Made by a program: the position numbers and the translations under genes. This document shows, one piece after another, positions 9,705-17,546 of a stretch of DNA of 42,305 nucleotides (position 1 is the first letter of the stretch; the number at the start of each line of letters is the position of its first letter). The stretch is from Dehalococcoidales bacterium (GTDB lineage Bacteria > Chloroflexota > Dehalococcoidia > Dehalococcoidales > RBG-16-60-22): NCBI GenBank assembly GCA_028712355.1, contig JAQTQH010000006.1, positions 1 through 42,305 on the forward strand, written 5' to 3'. The notes under the pieces are model-generated. The model saw only the letters and a program-made list of their open reading frames with translations. It searched no databases and was not told the DNA's origin.

Positions 9705-11756
9705 TTAAGAAGCCGGTTCGTCTTTCTTGATGGCTTCAGCGATGAGCTCGCACAGGTCGCGGGCTTTAACATTATCTTCAACACCCTTGGCTTTCAGAGC
9801 GTCTTCAAACATCGCCAGACAGTACGGACAGGCACTCGCTACGATATCCGCGCCCGATTGAATCACTTCCTCGATACGGCGGGTGTTGAGGCGCTTGGAA
9901 GGGTCTTCTTCCAGCCACATGTGTCCGCCGCCGCCGCCGCAGCAGAAGCTGTTTTCGCCGTGGCGTCCCAGCTCCACGCTCTGCATGCCGTTGATTGACT
10001 TCAATATCTGGCGGGGCTCAGCGTAGATGTCATTGTAGCGGCCCAGATAGCAGGAATCATGGTAGGCGGCTTTCTTGTTGCCGATGCTGTCCACCTTGAG
10101 TTTACCGCTGTTAAGCAGGTCGGCGATGAACTGGGTGTGATGGATGACCTCGTAGTTGCCGCCGAACTGGGGATATTCCTTCTTCAGCGAGTTGAAGCAG
10201 TGCGGACAAGCGGTGACGATTTTCTTAACATTGTAGTTTTTGAGAAGCTCGACGTTACCCTGGCAGATGGTCTGGAAGAGGTACTCATCGCCCATGCGGC
10301 GCGCCGGGTCGCCGCAGCAGGTTTCTTCTTCACCGAGCACGGCGAACTTGACGCCCGCTGCCTGCATGATTTTCGCGAAGGACTTGGCGATTTTCATATT
10401 GCGTTCATCGAGGGCGGCAGAGCAGCCCACCCAGTAAAGAATGTCTGCATTGGCGTCTTCCGCCATCGTCTTGACGCCCAGTCCCTGGAACCAGTCGGTC
10501 CGGGTAGCGGTCGTGCCGCGGTAGGGGTGCCCGCGCGTGCCGAGACTCTTCAGCGCACCCTGCCCCGATTCGGGAATCGCGGTGCGTTCCATGGTCAGGT
10601 TGCGCCGCATGTCAATCATCTTGTCCACGTGCTCGATGTAGACCGGGCAGGCACGCATACAGGCGCGGCAGGTGGTGCAGTCCCAGATGACCTCTTCGGT
10701 AATGACATCGGTGAGCATGTCCTTGCGCGGCTCGATGGGCTTGGCGGAGAAGGGGATGGGATAGGTCTCCTGCATATGCTTGAGCAGGTCCTGGATAACC
10801 TTCTTGGGATTCAGGTTTTTACCGCTGAAATATGCCGGACAGGCATCCTGGCAGCGCCCGCAGCGGGTGCAGGCGTCCAGATCAAGGAGTTGCTTCCAGG
10901 TGAAGTTTTCCAGCTTGGAAACGCCGAAGAACTCCGTCTTCTCCAGGTCGATGGGCTGGAGCGCGCCCTTCGGTTTCAGAGAGCGGAAGTAGATGTTCAG
11001 CGGTGCAAGTACGATGTGCTGCAAGCGTGAGCGGTTGAGCCATATATAGCCTAAGATAATGGCGGCGGGCACGGTATGAATGACCGCGCGGTGCCAGACC
11101 AGGATTTCATTACGGGCGGCGATGACGAAGGTGCGCATGATATTGGAAACGAGGTAGCCTACCGGCGACCACATCCACCAGTCGGGTGGCACGACGTCGC
11201 TGCTGGCGATGCGGTAGCCCTTGACCATGAAACCGGTGAGGACAATCACGCCCGCCCAGATGAAGACCAGCGAGTCCTCCGGCTTGTTGTCCAGTCTTGC
11301 CGGTCTAAGAATATAGCGGCGGAAGACCGCCAGACACCCGCCGATGATAATCAAAGCGCCGCCGATTTCCGAGACCAGCGAGGCATAAAGGTAAATACTC
11401 TGCGGGGGCGTGGTCAGCCCGGTAATGTAGGAGAAGAGGCGGACAATCTTGCCCGTAAAAAGCAGCGCCGTCCCGCCGAAGAGGCAGGTGTGCATGATGC
11501 CGGGATAAATCTCCTTGGGGCGGATGATGCGGATGTTCGCTACCGCTACGGCGAGAGTGGTCAGCAATCTGCTCTGCCAGTTACCGGAGCGGTCCTCGGG
11601 CTGTCCCAATTTCCAGACCCGGGCGCGCCGGGCGAAACCGAGGACGAAGACCAGTACCAGCGCCGGGGCAAGAAGCAACACCGCAATAATAACCGGCAGA
11701 AACATCTGCATGATATATACTTCTTGTCCCGTCCAGAACAGTTCGCGCAAAGACAT
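9705..11756 (-). CDS. Membrane-anchored HdrD/DsrK-like Fe-S oxidoreductase fused to a NarI/DsrM-like domain
   Basis: The N-terminal 250 residues contain five or six hydrophobic helices resembling the NarI/DsrM quinone-reactive cytochrome domain, with histidines in helices that could ligate heme. Two [4Fe-4S] motifs follow: CTRCGRCQDACP near residue 299 and CTTCRACMRACP near residue 365. The C-terminal half has two CCG domains, with TCCGDPARR plus CPHC, and FCCGGGGGHMW plus CPYC. In HdrB/HdrD-type proteins CCG domains bind noncubane Fe-S clusters; in DUF224 proteins linked to ETF they pass electrons to menaquinone. It is the last gene of the Mo-oxidoreductase operon and may couple the quinone pool to cytoplasmic thiol/disulfide, ferredoxin or ETF partners. 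The substrate is unknown. Confidence 0.88.
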   Translation of the reverse strand: MSLRELFWTGQEVYIMQMFLPVIIAVLLLAPALVLVFVLGFARRARVWKLGQPEDRSGNWQSRLLTTLAVAVANIRIIRPKEIYPGIMHTCLFGGTALLFTGKIVRLFSYITGLTTPPQSIYLYASLVSEIGGALIIIGGCLAVFRRYILRPARLDNKPEDSLVFIWAGVIVLTGFMVKGYRIASSDVVPPDWWMWSPVGYLVSNIMRTFVIAARNEILVWHRAVIHTVPAAIILGYIWLNRSRLQHIVLAPLNIYFRSLKPKGALQPIDLEKTEFFGVSKLENFTWKQLLDLDACTRCGRCQDACPAYFSGKNLNPKKVIQDLLKHMQETYPIPFSAKPIEPRKDMLTDVITEEVIWDCTTCRACMRACPVYIEHVDKMIDMRRNLTMERTAIPESGQGALKSLGTRGHPYRGTTATRTDWFQGLGVKTMAEDANADILYWVGCSAALDERNMKIAKSFAKIMQAAGVKFAVLGEEETCCGDPARRMGDEYLFQTICQGNVELLKNYNVKKIVTACPHCFNSLKKEYPQFGGNYEVIHHTQFIADLLNSGKLKVDSIGNKKAAYHDSCYLGRYNDIYAEPRQILKSINGMQSVELGRHGENSFCCGGGGGHMWLEEDPSKRLNTRRIEEVIQSGADIVASACPYCLAMFEDALKAKGVEDNVKARDLCELIAEAIKKDEPAS

Positions 11757-11979: not shown

Positions 11980-12471
11980 TTACGGCGATACCTGCACGCG
12001 TTGTTTTCTGAGCTGTGCTTTAATCTTGCAATCGGGACAGATTTCCAGGTTCAGCGCCGGCTGCCCGGCGGCAGCAATTTTCGCTTTTACACTGTTTATC
12101 ATAGCTCTGGGACCAATCGGCGCGCCGCACTCGGCGCAGCGGGCAATCTCATCCTCGTAGAGCACGGCAGCCGGGCTGCCGATTTTTTCGACTTCCAGTC
12201 CGCGCTCCAGGCTCAGGCAGTGCTCGGGGCATACTTCTACGCACTTGTTACACGCGATGCAGACCTGCTGCCGGAAGAGCATCTGTACCGCGCCGGTTGC
12301 CTTGTCTGCCGAAATAGTAAGGGCTCCCGTGGGACACTCGGCGGCGCAAATACCGCAGCCGGTGCAGCGGGCGCTCTCCATCTTTATCTTGCCGAAAGGC
12401 ACCGCCATCTTGAGCAGATCGCGGCGGCTGATTTCGCCCGTATTCGGTTCCTTGATGCTATCCATGTTCAT
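11980..12471 (-). CDS. 2[4Fe-4S] ferredoxin-type protein with C-terminal zinc-ribbon-like motif
   Basis: Two classical clusters are visible: CTGCGICAAECP near residue 37 and CIACNKCVEVCP near residue 72. A later pair, CAECGAP near residue 114 and CPDCK near residue 147, could bind zinc or a further cluster. The N-terminus has RRDLLKMAVPF, reminiscent of a Tat motif but without a convincing hydrophobic core, so export is doubtful. As the second Fe-S protein of the operon it could connect the NrfD module with the HdrD-like fusion on the cytoplasmic side. That is inference from gene order. Confidence 0.85.
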   Translation of the reverse strand: MNMDSIKEPNTGEISRRDLLKMAVPFGKIKMESARCTGCGICAAECPTGALTISADKATGAVQMLFRQQVCIACNKCVEVCPEHCLSLERGLEVEKIGSPAAVLYEDEIARCAECGAPIGPRAMINSVKAKIAAAGQPALNLEICPDCKIKAQLRKQRVQVSP

Positions 12472-12480
12472 AATTTTCTC

Positions 12481-13722
12481 TTATTTAGCCGCTTCCGCAG
12501 GCTCCGCGGGAGTTTCTGCTGGAGCAGAAGCAGGTACCGTTACCGGTTTGGGTTCCTCGGCAGGCTGCGCCGGTAATATGGGCAGATACCTCAGTCCCAG
12601 CACGAAAAGAAGTGCTACCATGGCAACCGCACCGAGGGACATCGTGGTCTCCCAGAAGGTAACCGGGAAGGAACCAGGAGTACCCCAGATACCCTGAAGC
12701 TCGCCGGGGAAGAGCTGCTGTACCTGTGCCGTGCCGGGAAGAACGATAGCGGCTCTTTCGCCGAACACGCCGATAACCACGGACAGCGAGGCCGCCAGCG
12801 CGCCTTTCACGGTCTTGCCTGCCTTAGGATGGAAAAGAATAATCAGGGGCAGCACGATGCCCATGCCGATTTGCATTATCCAGAAGAGAGGCCAGTAAGG
12901 GCCGGTAGTTAAAAAGACGGTACCCTGCCGGTGCGGGAAGTAGGTATGCACCAGCTTATCGAAGAAGACCATAATCAGCAGCACGATAATGAAATAAGAT
13001 AATAACTTGCCCAGGGAAACGAGCAACTTCGGGTCGATTTTTCGTTTGCTCGCCTTAAAAGATATAAAAGCAAGGATGATGAGCAGGGCAGTACCGGAGG
13101 TACAGGCTGCCACCACAAACTCAAACGGCTTGATGGGCGAGGTCAGGATGTCCCGCGTCTGGATAAGGCCGAAAATCGACCCGGTGAAGGTATGGACTAA
13201 GACTGCCCAGCAAACGTCTACAGTACCTATTATGACAGCCAGCCGGTGCTTGCCTTCAATCACGAGCCAGAGGTAAACAATCATCAGCAGGATGTAGCCG
13301 CCGTAGAAGATACCGTTGATGGCGAAGACCGAGGTCATGTTGTTCAGGTAGAAGAACATGAAGAGACGCCAGAACTTCTCCGGCCGCCCCAGGTCGGTGA
13401 GGACGCAAATCATGGCACCAATCATGCACAGGAGACCCACGTAAACGGCGAGCCTGCCGATGGGTTTGTATTCTTCCTTTTTGAAGACGTAGCCCAGTGA
13501 GGAGACGACGATGGCACCGGCGGAAAGACCGATGAAGTAGATGTCCAGGGTAATGAGCTGCCCCCAGGGAATAACATTGCTGATTCCCCAGACCTGCAAG
13601 CCTTTCAGATAAGCCGTCAGGTAGCTGACGATGAAAATCGCAATCACAATCCCGATGGCGAACAGCAAACTGCGGTAGCTGCGGGACTTGCCTTCGATTG
13701 GTGCGTAGCTCAGTTCTTCCAT
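12481..13722 (-). CDS. NrfD/PsrC-type polysulfide-reductase membrane subunit
   Basis: This integral membrane protein of 413 residues has about ten hydrophobic spans and the NrfD/PsrC pattern: an early WGQLITLDIYFIGLSAGA helix, LTDLGRPEKFWR, and a late FGERAAIVLPG segment. NrfD proteins carry no cofactor of their own, bind menaquinone/menaquinol and pass electrons to or from a DmsB-like subunit. The last 30 residues form an unusual Pro/Ala/Glu-rich tail (after LPILPAQPAEEP). It is separated by only 11 bases from the DmsB-like ferredoxin gene upstream. Confidence 0.9.
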   Translation of the reverse strand: MEELSYAPIEGKSRSYRSLLFAIGIVIAIFIVSYLTAYLKGLQVWGISNVIPWGQLITLDIYFIGLSAGAIVVSSLGYVFKKEEYKPIGRLAVYVGLLCMIGAMICVLTDLGRPEKFWRLFMFFYLNNMTSVFAINGIFYGGYILLMIVYLWLVIEGKHRLAVIIGTVDVCWAVLVHTFTGSIFGLIQTRDILTSPIKPFEFVVAACTSGTALLIILAFISFKASKRKIDPKLLVSLGKLLSYFIIVLLIMVFFDKLVHTYFPHRQGTVFLTTGPYWPLFWIMQIGMGIVLPLIILFHPKAGKTVKGALAASLSVVIGVFGERAAIVLPGTAQVQQLFPGELQGIWGTPGSFPVTFWETTMSLGAVAMVALLFVLGLRYLPILPAQPAEEPKPVTVPASAPAETPAEPAEAAK

Positions 13723-13733
13723 GCTTCCTCTTA

Positions 13734-14423
13734 TTATCTGGGCAGGTAAAACACCTTGGGTTCAGTGTGCATTTCTTCACGCAGGCGGAACCAGGTGCGC
13801 GTCGCCAGCAACTGGGAAACTTCGCTTTCGGGGTCATCAAGGTCGCCGAAAGCGCGGGCGCGGGTGGGACAGGCTTCCACACAAGCCGGTACCACGTCCG
13901 TGCCTACCTCTTTGCCTTCCCGGAGCGCCTGGTCGATGCGGTGGAAACAAAAAGTACACTTCTCCACGACACCGCGCACCCGCGTGGGATAGGGCCACAT
14001 GCCTCTCACCGCGAGGGTGGGGGGCAAATCAGGATGATGGTAGGGTTTGGCTTCCTGGTCTTTGAAGTTAAAATGGCGCACGCCGTAAGGGCACGCCACG
14101 ATGCAATAGCGGCAGCCGATGCATTTACGGTAATCCTGCACCACGATATGGTCCGGCTCGCGGTGGTAGGTTGCCTTCGCCGGGCAGACGGTCGTGCAGG
14201 GCGCCTGGTCGCATTGCATGCAGGGCATCGGGATAAACTCCCAGCGCTGGGTGGGATATTCGCCTTCGGCGGCGGCAATCACGCGGTGCCAGTACGGCTC
14301 GCGGCGCTTCGCCTGCTCCTCCGGGGAGCCGTGCGGGACGTCGTTTTCTGCCTTACAGGCCAGACTGCATGCCTGACAGCCGATGCATTTATCCAGGTCG
14401 ATGACCATGCCCCATCTTGCCAT
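13734..14423 (-). CDS. Four-cluster [4Fe-4S] ferredoxin subunit (PsrB/DmsB type)
   Basis: Four Cys groups of the DmsB/NrfC family are visible in order: CIGCQACSLACK near residue 15, CMQCDQAPCTTVCP near residue 68, CIGCRYCIVACPYG near residue 101, and CTFCFHR with CVEACPTRA near residues 147-175. Such subunits carry electrons between the catalytic Mo subunit and the NrfD quinone subunit, normally on the same side as the catalytic subunit; it has no own signal, so it would travel with the Tat-exported partner. It sits eight bases downstream of the catalytic subunit gene. Confidence 0.93.
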   Translation of the reverse strand: MARWGMVIDLDKCIGCQACSLACKAENDVPHGSPEEQAKRREPYWHRVIAAAEGEYPTQRWEFIPMPCMQCDQAPCTTVCPAKATYHREPDHIVVQDYRKCIGCRYCIVACPYGVRHFNFKDQEAKPYHHPDLPPTLAVRGMWPYPTRVRGVVEKCTFCFHRIDQALREGKEVGTDVVPACVEACPTRARAFGDLDDPESEVSQLLATRTWFRLREEMHTEPKVFYLPR

Positions 14424-14431
14424 GTTTTACC

Positions 14432-16723
14432 TCAAGCCCGGTACACCCGTACTCTGGTGTTATAGAAGGCGGACTGACCGCTGGTGCGGTCATAAGCCAC
14501 GCCCGTAATTTCATTGGGATTGATGCCGATTCCCTTCGCCCAGCGCCCGGCGGCGGTATGCCCCTGTCCCATGGCGATGCTGACCACATGCGGGTGCACC
14601 CCGGCGAAGATGCGGGCTTTCGCCCTGAGTTTGCCGAAGGGTGATTCCACCCAGACCTCATCGAGGTCCTTGATGTGTAGTTCGTGGGCGGTCTCTTTGT
14701 TGATTTCCACGAAGTTGCCCCAGCCCCGCGCATGCATCGCCAGATAGATTTCCTGCGCCCACGGGTAGTTCTGGACATCACTTTCTATCTTGAGCACCGG
14801 GTGATAGGTCGTCAGCACCAGCGGGTATTGTTTCTCATCGCCGAAGAAATCGGCTTTTTCGTAATGCGGCAGGTAAGCCTGTTCATCAGCGGATTTGCCC
14901 AGTTCCTTGAGGCGTGCCTCCAGGTTACCGGAGCGGAACTCGAATTTTCTGGATGGCGTCTTGAAAATACTGTCATACTTGTAATATTTATAACTCTTAT
15001 TGACCCAAACGCCGTCGTCAAGCCATTTCTGCCAGTTCATCAGGTTTTCCGTGCGGAACCGGACGAATTCCTCAGCGGTTCTCCCCATTCCAGCGAACGA
15101 CTGGGTTATCGAGCCGCCGAGCCGCCCCGCCAGCTCAAAAATAATGTCAATAATTCCCATCGTGTCGTGGAGCTTCGCTACAGCAGGCTGCTTGAGCTTC
15201 ACCTCGGCGAAGCCGGAGCCGGGCGGCGAGTGGTCATACCCCCATTCTTCGAGAAAGGTAGGGGAGGGCATGACGATATCGGCGTACTCCGCCATCTCGC
15301 TGACGGATGGGGCGATGTGCACGTAGAAGGGCAGTTTTTTCATGGCTTCTTCCCAGCGCGCTGTCGCCGGGGCGGTCATGTTGAAGTTGCTGTTAAACCC
15401 GATGGCTATTTCGGCAGGATAGGGACGACCCGCGATAATGGAGTCCGCCGCCTGATTGGTGACTGTTTCGGCAGCAGGGAAATCGGCGGTATGACCGAGG
15501 TCCAAACGTTGCTGGGACTTGCCCTTCTTCGCAGTGTCATCCTCAGCCAGGGCGGGCATAGCTTTGTATTCCGGGTTAATCTGGTAGGTGACGCCGCCGG
15601 GTACATCGATGCTGCCGACTAATGCATTAAGGCAGAAGATGGCATAGCCGGTATAAGCCCCGTTGGGCCAACCGGTGGCGCCCCTGCCGCGCCAGGCAAT
15701 TGCCGGTTTAGTAGCAGCAAACTCGCGGGCGATCTTATAAATAGTTTCGGCGGAAATGCCGGTGATGGGAGCGACCTTCTCCGGGCGATAGGACTCGATG
15801 ACCACCTGGCGGTAGGCGTCCAGGCCGGTGGTGTATTTTTCGACGAAGTCAGCATCATAAAGTTTTTCGGTGATAATGACATAGGCAATAGCCATCGCGA
15901 GGGCGGCATCGGTGCCCGGGTTGATGGGCAACCACTGGTCGGCTTTGGCGGCAGTTATCGAATACCGCGGGTCGACGACGACCACTTTGACGCGGTTGGG
16001 GCGCTCGCGGCGCATTTTGCCCCACATGCGCAGGTTGCGCGCCAGGGGCTTCTGCGACTCGACGATATTGGCGCCGAAAGCCAGGATGTAATTGGTATTG
16101 GCGAGGTCATAGGCGCTCTGGGTGAAGTTGCCGTCCGCCAGCCATTCACTCGCCATGTCCGCCTCGTTCTCCAGTCCCTCGGCGGAAATCAGGTTGGGCG
16201 TGCCGTAGGCTGCCGCGAAGCGGCGGATAACGTCCTCGTCACTGATAGTATTCAAGCCCTGGAACAGGACCAGCTTATGAGGGTTGCCGCCGGCGCGGAG
16301 CGCCTGGAGACGGTCGGTAATCTCGGTAAGCGCCTGTCCCCAGCTGATGGGCGTCCACTTAGGGTCGATACCCTTGCCCTTGGCGGTATTCGTCCGCTTC
16401 ATCGGACCCTCTAGGCGGTCGGGATCATATAACACCTGCAGCCCGATATGGGCGCGTGGGCAGTTTTCTCCTTCGGATACCTGGGAGAGTGGATTGCCGG
16501 CTATCTTGACGGCCATACCGTTGGTCACTCTGACGCGGGTGGCGCAGCGAGTGGCGCAGTTGAGACAGGAAGTGGCGACGTACTTATCGGTGATGACACC
16601 TTCGGGTGGACGTTCGATGAGAGGTTCTGCCAGCGCGGGACGCCGGGTGAAGCGGGTTGCCAGCGCTGCCGCCCCGGTGAGCGCCGAAAGCTTGATGAAA
16701 GTACGCCGATTTATGCTAAACAC
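14432..16723 (-). CDS. Tat-exported molybdopterin oxidoreductase, PsrA/PhsA-like catalytic subunit
   Basis: The N-terminus (NRRTFIKLSALTGAAALAT) is a twin-arginine signal, so the protein acts outside the cytoplasmic membrane. An N-terminal [4Fe-4S] site is formed by C53, C56, C60 and C88. The molybdopterin domain follows (VVVDPRYSITAAKADQWLPI, GTDAALAMAIAYVI), and the C-terminal dinucleotide-binding domain contains VVSIAMGQGHTAAGR. Where polysulfide and related reductases place the Mo-ligating Cys, after the GTPN motif, this protein reads SAEGLENEAD, with E185 at the aligned position. The substrate cannot be read from sequence: polysulfide, thiosulfate, tetrathionate or a quinone-linked role are all possible. 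The start is GTG at 16723 and a promoter-like site lies only a few bases upstream. Confidence 0.92.
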   Translation of the reverse strand: MFSINRRTFIKLSALTGAAALATRFTRRPALAEPLIERPPEGVITDKYVATSCLNCATRCATRVRVTNGMAVKIAGNPLSQVSEGENCPRAHIGLQVLYDPDRLEGPMKRTNTAKGKGIDPKWTPISWGQALTEITDRLQALRAGGNPHKLVLFQGLNTISDEDVIRRFAAAYGTPNLISAEGLENEADMASEWLADGNFTQSAYDLANTNYILAFGANIVESQKPLARNLRMWGKMRRERPNRVKVVVVDPRYSITAAKADQWLPINPGTDAALAMAIAYVIITEKLYDADFVEKYTTGLDAYRQVVIESYRPEKVAPITGISAETIYKIAREFAATKPAIAWRGRGATGWPNGAYTGYAIFCLNALVGSIDVPGGVTYQINPEYKAMPALAEDDTAKKGKSQQRLDLGHTADFPAAETVTNQAADSIIAGRPYPAEIAIGFNSNFNMTAPATARWEEAMKKLPFYVHIAPSVSEMAEYADIVMPSPTFLEEWGYDHSPPGSGFAEVKLKQPAVAKLHDTMGIIDIIFELAGRLGGSITQSFAGMGRTAEEFVRFRTENLMNWQKWLDDGVWVNKSYKYYKYDSIFKTPSRKFEFRSGNLEARLKELGKSADEQAYLPHYEKADFFGDEKQYPLVLTTYHPVLKIESDVQNYPWAQEIYLAMHARGWGNFVEINKETAHELHIKDLDEVWVESPFGKLRAKARIFAGVHPHVVSIAMGQGHTAAGRWAKGIGINPNEITGVAYDRTSGQSAFYNTRVRVYRA

Positions 16724-16884: not shown

Positions 16885-16922
16885 CCAATCGGGTCAGGCT
16901 AACCATGTTCAGGAGGCCGCTT

Positions 16923-17546
16923 TTGATTGAGACTAAGGGGCATTTTCAGTTTGTTCATTTATTAATAGCAGCGGCGATATCTGCTGTAGCGCTTGTTCTG
17001 GGGGCTTGCGGCGGTCAGGAGTCGGCATCAACCGCTTCTCCTGCTGCGTCTGCTACGGCGCAGCCGGGCGAAGCTTGGTCGGCGGACGGGATAATCAAGG
17101 CCGGAGAATATGCCGCCAGCAACCAGTATAGCGATTATCAAATCTTCTGGCGGAGTGATGCTAAATATGTCTATAGCGGAGTTAAAGCCAGGACCGGCGG
17201 CTTTGTTGCGATAGGACTACAACCGGGTTCACGGATGAAAAACGCCGATATGGTTCTCACCTATGTTACAAACGGGGACGTTGTTATTCATGACATGTTC
17301 AGTACGGGCGATTTTGGGCCGCACCTGGACGATACTGAACTAGGGGGCAGCAATGATATTGTGGAATACGGTGGCAGTGAAGCGGACAATTACACGACCA
17401 TCGAGTTCAAACGGGCTTTAGATACCGGAGACAGATACGATGTTCCCTTATCGGCGGGAACGAACAGGATAATATGGGCGTTTGGACTAAGTGATGGACT
17501 GTCACAAAAGCACGCCAGACGGGGCTACGGGGAAATTGGGCTGTAG
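16923..17546 (+). CDS. DOMON-domain lipoprotein
   Basis: The TTG at 16923 is preferred because AGGAGG lies six bases before it (16911-16916); an in-frame ATG at 16905 would place the ribosome site inside the gene. From this start the protein has a typical lipoprotein signal ending in the lipobox LGAC, then a Ser/Thr/Ala linker, then a DOMON-like beta-sandwich. This contains DYQIFWRSDAKYVYSGVKA, GFVAIGLQPGSRMKNADMV, DMFSTGDFGPHLDD and a late WAFGLSDG. DOMON domains bind heme b or sugars. Lying divergently next to an exported Mo enzyme, it may be an extracytoplasmic electron-transfer or sensor protein; that role is inferred. Confidence 0.78.
   Translation: MIETKGHFQFVHLLIAAAISAVALVLGACGGQESASTASPAASATAQPGEAWSADGIIKAGEYAASNQYSDYQIFWRSDAKYVYSGVKARTGGFVAIGLQPGSRMKNADMVLTYVTNGDVVIHDMFSTGDFGPHLDDTELGGSNDIVEYGGSEADNYTTIEFKRALDTGDRYDVPLSAGTNRIIWAFGLSDGLSQKHARRGYGEIGL

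What the first reader, a model, noticed from the sequence alone, without database searches (positions are those of the whole stretch)
16160..16200. Glu in place of the usual molybdenum ligand in the Tat-exported oxidoreductase
In PsrA/PhsA/TtrA-type enzymes a Cys follows the G-x-P-N motif in a pattern like S-H-D-S-x-C-N. Here the same window reads SAEGLEN, placing E185 at the ligand site. Cys, selenocysteine, Ser and Asp ligands are established for this superfamily; Glu at this position is not one I know. The [4Fe-4S] cysteines C53, C56, C60 and C88 are intact, so the enzyme does not look degenerate. It may define a new subfamily, or the protein may have lost Mo like QrcB-type subunits.
Basis: partly seen in the sequence, partly recalled or inferred. 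Interest (0 to 1): 0.7.

Follow-up and report, generated by a model that had tools for sequence, protein, structure and literature searches.

The report
Molybdenum-enzyme subunit lacking its metal ligand
This protein looks like an exported molybdenum enzyme but has lost the cysteine that normally holds the metal; the glutamate now there varies freely in its relatives, so the protein is probably a non-catalytic electron-carrying subunit of a membrane complex linked to fatty-acid (beta-oxidation) electron flow.

Summary
In detail: in the 763-aa Tat-exported MopB protein (16723..14432, minus) E185 sits, without gaps, where ArrA-type relatives have the Mo-ligand Cys, and C53/C56/C60/C88 are intact. 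The main interpretation, Glu as a new Mo ligand, is not supported. In the 30-member clade holding the protein the residue is E (18), D (8), N (2) or G (2), and ranks only 440th of 718 columns in conservation; all 20 Cys-bearing relatives have Cys. Two pairs of relatives (87% and 88.5% identical) differ there (D/N, E/G), with dN/dS 0.14 and 0.10. The clade is sister to Cys-bearing ArrA-like proteins and distinct from QrcB, so it lost the ligand independently. It keeps the [4Fe-4S] cysteines and Arg90. Its genes are linked, in Dehalococcoidia and Syntrophaceae, to a four-cluster Fe-S subunit, a 10-helix NrfD subunit resembling ActC, and an EtfD/EMO-type ETF:menaquinone oxidoreductase; no cytochrome c is nearby. 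Most likely it is an electron-conducting or structural subunit of an EtfD-linked, Qrc/ACIII-like complex. Whether pterin or Mo is bound is unresolved. New variant of a known kind.

The parts
14432..16723 (-). MopB (ArrA-like) subunit, 763 aa, Tat leader, [4Fe-4S] Cys 53/56/60/88, no Mo-ligand Cys
16166..16186 (-). SAEGLEN, residues 180-186; E185 codon GAG at 16169-16171
   Evidence: column 185 variable E/D/N/G
13734..14423 (-). QrcC/DsrO/ArrB-like Fe-S subunit, 229 aa, 16 Cys (enough for four clusters)
   Evidence: NCBIfam QrcC 219 bits, DsrO 191 bits, both below cut-off; Cys count; PDB hits ArrB and the ActB C-terminus
12481..13722 (-). NrfD-like membrane subunit, 10 predicted transmembrane helices, fold like ActC
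   Evidence: Pfam NrfD; AF2 model and Foldseek best hits ActC
11980..12471 (-). Small 4Fe-4S ferredoxin, in Chloroflexota copies of the cluster; not detected in the Syntrophaceae copies
9705..11756 (-). EtfD/EMO-type ETF:menaquinone oxidoreductase: cytochrome-b-like membrane part, two 4Fe-4S motifs, two CCG domains
   Evidence: PDB 9ojn_A E=1.8e-100; CCG; invariant His/Cys in 13 homologues

Best explanation
The protein is the exported MopB-fold subunit of an NrfD-type membrane complex; it descends from an ArrA-like enzyme and has lost the protein ligand to Mo. E185 is not a metal ligand but sits in the turn between two helices where E, D, N and G are all tolerated. Shown by sequence: lack of the ligand Cys in all 30 clade members, loss of the Arg (157) and His (181) that are invariant in Cys-bearing ArrA-like relatives, retention of the [4Fe-4S] cysteines and Arg90, and conserved linkage to the Fe-S subunit, the 10-helix NrfD subunit and EtfD. 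Inferred: electrons from acyl-CoA dehydrogenases reach EtfD via ETF, pass to a quinone or directly to the NrfD/Fe-S module, and move out to the periplasmic Fe-S/MopB arm (or run the reverse way, as in syntrophic reverse electron transport), with the MopB subunit serving as an electron-conducting or docking subunit, as proposed for ActB and QrcB, rather than as an oxidoreductase.
For: Column 185 is E18/D8/N2/G2, conservation rank 440 of 718, against Cys 20/20 in Cys-bearing relatives; N and G occur in close orthologues with dN/dS 0.10-0.14. Arg157 (8/8 in Cys-bearing ArrA-like proteins) is Leu in 30/30 and His181 (8/8) is A/G/D/E. QrcB-family proteins have E/D/Q/K/S/V/F/A/W in the same column and QrcB is described as cofactor-less (PMC6303296, PMC13059093). 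The NrfD partner has 10 helices and matches ActC better than PsrC; PMC6303296 states that the 10-helix group goes with non-standard, cofactor-less or cytochrome 'catalytic' subunits. Cluster order MopB-FeS-NrfD-(Fd)-EtfD is kept in Chloroflexota and Syntrophaceae; etfBA are adjacent in L045 and L048; the solved homologue EtfD links ETF to menaquinone.
Against: The pterin-binding framework is largely kept: 87% mean retention of columns conserved in Cys-bearing relatives, against 76% in QrcB, and Arg90 is 30/30 while QrcB loses it, so a bis-PGD, possibly with Mo, may still bind. 26 of 30 members have E or D at 185 and all 30 have an acid at 181 or 182, a bias that a purely structural role does not explain. 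Direct contact between EtfD and the NrfD complex is inferred from gene order only.
Confidence: 0.6

Rival explanations
1. A working molybdo/tungsto-enzyme that binds Mo/W-bisPGD without any protein ligand, as in AioA and IdrA, acting on an unknown periplasmic substrate.
For: Full-length ArrA-like fold (TM 0.89); Fe-S Cys and Arg90 invariant, pterin-pocket columns mostly kept; strong purifying selection; AioA and IdrA have no amino acid ligand (PMC10100899).
Against: Arg157 and His181, invariant in Cys-bearing relatives, are gone; the Asp of the DPR motif, conserved in Cys-bearing relatives, varies (D 21, Q 5, N 2, E 1, H 1); the NrfD partner is of the 10-helix type linked to non-enzymatic subunits.
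Confidence: 0.25
2. Glu/Asp at 185 is a genuine carboxylate ligand to Mo, a new ligand type in the superfamily.
For: Aligned exactly with the ligand Cys; acidic in 26 of 30 clade members; Asp is a known ligand in NarG-type enzymes (general knowledge).
Against: N in two and G in two clade members, in separate lineages that are otherwise equally conserved; below-median column conservation; the same column is also E/D in several QrcB-family proteins, a family described as cofactor-less.
Confidence: 0.06
3. The alignment is locally off and a nearby acid, 181 or 182, is the metal ligand.
For: An acid at 181 or 182 in 30 of 30 members.
Against: The acid moves between 181 and 182; phmmer, multiple alignment and hhalign all pair 185 with Cys, ungapped, between conserved GTPN and EA.
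Confidence: 0.04
4. Local mutation, pseudogene or sequencing error.
For: None found.
Against: The same lack of Cys in all orthologues from many genomes and two phyla, with dN/dS about 0.1.
Confidence: 0.01

Closest known systems
ArrA, respiratory arsenate reductase catalytic subunit (PDB 6cz7)
   Same: Closest solved structure by sequence (E 7.9e-122) and by fold (TM 0.89); collinear over its length; [4Fe-4S] cysteines and the Arg after the fourth Cys kept
   Different: Ligand Cys, the His four residues before it and the Arg at 157 are lost; 458 bits against the 1600-bit ArrA cut-off; linked to a 10-helix NrfD and to EtfD
QrcB of QrcABCD
   Same: Tat-type MopB without ligand Cys, encoded with a QrcC-like Fe-S subunit and an NrfD-type subunit
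   Different: Below the QrcB cut-off; separate clade in the tree; keeps Arg90 and all four Cys; no cytochrome c (QrcA) gene nearby
ActB of alternative complex III
   Same: MopB-like subunit without Mo/W-bisPGD, from the ArrA side of the superfamily (PMC10100899); the NrfD partner here resembles ActC
   Different: ActB is fused to the Fe-S subunit and comes with cytochromes; here the genes are separate and no cytochrome gene was seen
OmeA/OmeB of Dehalococcoides
   Same: Predicted molybdopterin-type subunit plus membrane subunit in a Dehalococcoidia complex; a Mo centre has not been confirmed there (PMC6005880)
   Different: OmeA was not compared directly here; it belongs to a hydrogenase/dehalogenase complex and no EtfD link is described in the passages read

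Membership tests
ArrA (NF041714) | Score above curated cut-off (1600 bits) | tested here: not met
   457.6 bits
ArrA (NF041714) | Mo-ligand Cys and the preceding His | tested here: not met
   E185 and A181; alignment
QrcB (NF041783) | Score above curated cut-off (440 bits) | tested here: not met
   266.1 bits; separate clade
QrcB / Qrc complex | No Mo-ligand Cys in the MopB subunit | tested here: met
QrcB / Qrc complex | Multihaem cytochrome c subunit encoded with it | tested here: not met
   No CxxCH in cluster proteins and no multi-CxxCH ORF in 11 orthologous loci
QrcB / Qrc complex | Absence of pterin cofactor | not testable with these tools
   Needs metal and pterin analysis
DMSO reductase (MopB) superfamily | Molybdopterin, Fe4S4 and dinucleotide-binding domains | tested here: met
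   PF00384, PF04879, PF01568 over cut-off; fold
AioA/IdrA (ligand-free Mo enzymes) | N-terminal [3Fe-4S] instead of [4Fe-4S] cluster (stated for IdrA in PMC10100899) | tested here: not met
   Four Cys kept in the whole clade
EtfD/EMO (gene 9705-11756) | Homology to solved EtfD, CCG domains, haem-type His and Fe-S Cys | tested here: met
   9ojn_A E 1.8e-100, CCG, invariant residues
10-helix NrfD group (QrcD/DsrP/ActC) | Ten transmembrane helices, closer to ActC than to PsrC | tested here: met

The most novel reading that the evidence does not exclude
The cluster encodes a supercomplex in which EtfD hands electrons from beta-oxidation straight to an NrfD/Fe-S/MopB arm without a diffusible quinone (neither mqnA/D nor menD above cut-off was found in this genome), and in which the acid-rich former active site (acids at 181/182, 185, 187) holds a ligand-free or carboxylate-bound metal with a new periplasmic redox role.
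Probability: 0.12. Interest if true: 0.75.

Novelty: new variant of a known kind. Interest (0 to 1): 0.42.

Why it matters
It removes a tempting but wrong claim of a Glu-ligated Mo enzyme and replaces it with a defined, unnamed lineage of ligand-less MopB subunits that arose independently of QrcB and is linked, across two phyla, to EtfD. That linkage gives a testable candidate for how electrons from fatty-acid or aromatic oxidation leave ETF in syntrophs and in Dehalococcoidia without detectable menaquinone synthesis. It also warns against annotating such genes as arsenate, thiosulfate or polysulfide reductases.

Tried and rejected
Glu as ligand: rejected on column variability. Neighbouring acids 181/182 as ligand: one of the two is always acidic but neither position is fixed; not favoured. 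Pseudogene or error: rejected by dN/dS and orthologues. QrcB membership: rejected by score, tree and lack of a cytochrome gene. ArrA and PhsA membership: below cut-offs and ligand lost. Placing bis-MGD in the model by superposition was not possible because model coordinates are not exposed. Literature searches found no description of this clade or of a Glu ligand, but only open-licence papers are held. The NrfD protein has no PDB match by sequence at E<=0.001, so fold comparison was used instead. Papers on the ArrA crystal structure and on the original Qrc description were not held.

Full report
Observation. The minus-strand ORF 16723..14432 encodes a 763-aa protein with a Tat leader and the three MopB domains. 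C53, C56, C60 and C88 are present and residues 180-186 read SAEGLEN with E185 coded GAG. Its closest solved relative by sequence is Shewanella ArrA (E 7.9e-122), then the Thermus polysulfide/thiosulfate reductase 2vpw. In the ungapped ArrA alignment E185 pairs with the ligand Cys; a profile-profile alignment of 13 clade members with 8 Cys-bearing relatives gives the same pairing. An AlphaFold2 model (mean pLDDT 90) matches ArrA best (TM-score 0.89). The factual part of the finding is therefore confirmed.

Is Glu a ligand? Orthologues came from relatives of the host genome and from GTDB genomes. In the 30 clade members aligned, column 185 is E in 18, D in 8, N in 2, G in 2; it ranks 440th of 718 columns in conservation, whereas 20 of 20 Cys-bearing relatives have Cys. 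L032 (N) and L033 (D) are 87% identical, L040 (G) and L041 (E) 88.5%, with dN/dS 0.14 and 0.10. A first-shell metal ligand should not behave like this. In the model, 185 lies in the turn between helix 181-184 and helix 187-197; E, D, N and G suit such a helix-start turn (inference). A caveat stands: 26 of 30 are acidic, and 181 or 182 is acidic in all 30. I cannot explain that bias fully.

Where it belongs. In a 47-sequence tree built without the ligand region, the clade (bootstrap/SH-aLRT 100/99) is sister (100/100) to Cys-bearing ArrA-like proteins L015, L069, L079 and L086, while QrcB proteins fall elsewhere (the 91-sequence quick tree agrees). So the Cys was most simply lost here independently of QrcB; the whole tree needs at least three Cys/non-Cys changes. 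The clade differs from Cys-bearing kin by Arg157 to Leu (30/30) and by loss of His181. It keeps all four Fe-S cysteines and Arg90, which QrcB replaces. The Asp of the DPR motif, conserved in Cys-bearing relatives (19 of 20), is N, Q, E or H in 9 of 30. Pterin binding is thus plausible but not assured.

Surroundings. Downstream genes encode a 16-Cys Fe-S subunit (QrcC 219, DsrO 191 bits), an NrfD-family protein, a small ferredoxin and a 683-aa protein that is an EtfD/EMO homologue (PDB 9ojn_A, E 1.8e-100) with conserved His and Cys residues. The NrfD protein has ten helices in its model (mean pLDDT 80) and its best structural matches are ActC subunits of alternative complex III. The gene order is kept in Dehalococcoidia and Syntrophaceae loci, with etfBA adjacent in L045 and L048. 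No multihaem cytochrome gene was seen in the cluster or in 11 orthologous loci. The genome has several ETF genes but no MqnA/MqnD and no MenD over cut-off; it is about 96% complete, so absence is tentative.

Mechanism. EtfD in mycobacteria links ETF to menaquinone (PMC13083937); Qrc and Act pair 10-helix NrfD subunits with cofactor-less MopB-like subunits (PMC6303296). By analogy, the best reading is a complex in which electrons exchange between ETF/EtfD, a quinone or direct contact, the NrfD/Fe-S module and an exported Fe-S/MopB arm. Shown: composition, linkage, lack of ligand. Inferred: direction of flow, contact of EtfD with the NrfD complex, absence of catalysis. The main rival is a ligand-free but active Mo enzyme as in AioA/IdrA (PMC10100899).

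Novelty. MopB proteins without a protein ligand or without the cofactor are known (QrcB, ActB, AioA, IdrA). This lineage, its independent origin and its link to EtfD were not found described in the open-licence papers searched. I rate it a new variant of a known kind, interest 0.42.

Noticed in passing
window 9705-11756: EtfD/EMO homologue in a genome with no detected menaquinone-synthesis genes (mqnA/D absent, menD below cut-off)
   Followed up: partly
window 16905-17546: Divergently transcribed lipoprotein-like protein with a DOMON domain next to the MopB gene; no tblastn match in the nearest relative's locus L031
   Followed up: partly
L081-L085: A second, distant (about 30% identical) MopB group in the same class with E/D at the same column and intact Fe-S cysteines in most
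   Followed up: partly
L091, L092, L094, L095: Syntrophaceae-type ArrA-like proteins with Trp at the ligand column; L073, L074, L100 have Gly: repeated absence of the Cys in this radiation
   Followed up: no
L034:12247-13968: At the place of the small ferredoxin gene, a larger polyferredoxin ORF with an FlpD (MvhD-like) domain
   Followed up: no
window 11980-12471: Small ferredoxin with SRRDLLK near its N-terminus but no clear hydrophobic stretch after it
   Followed up: no
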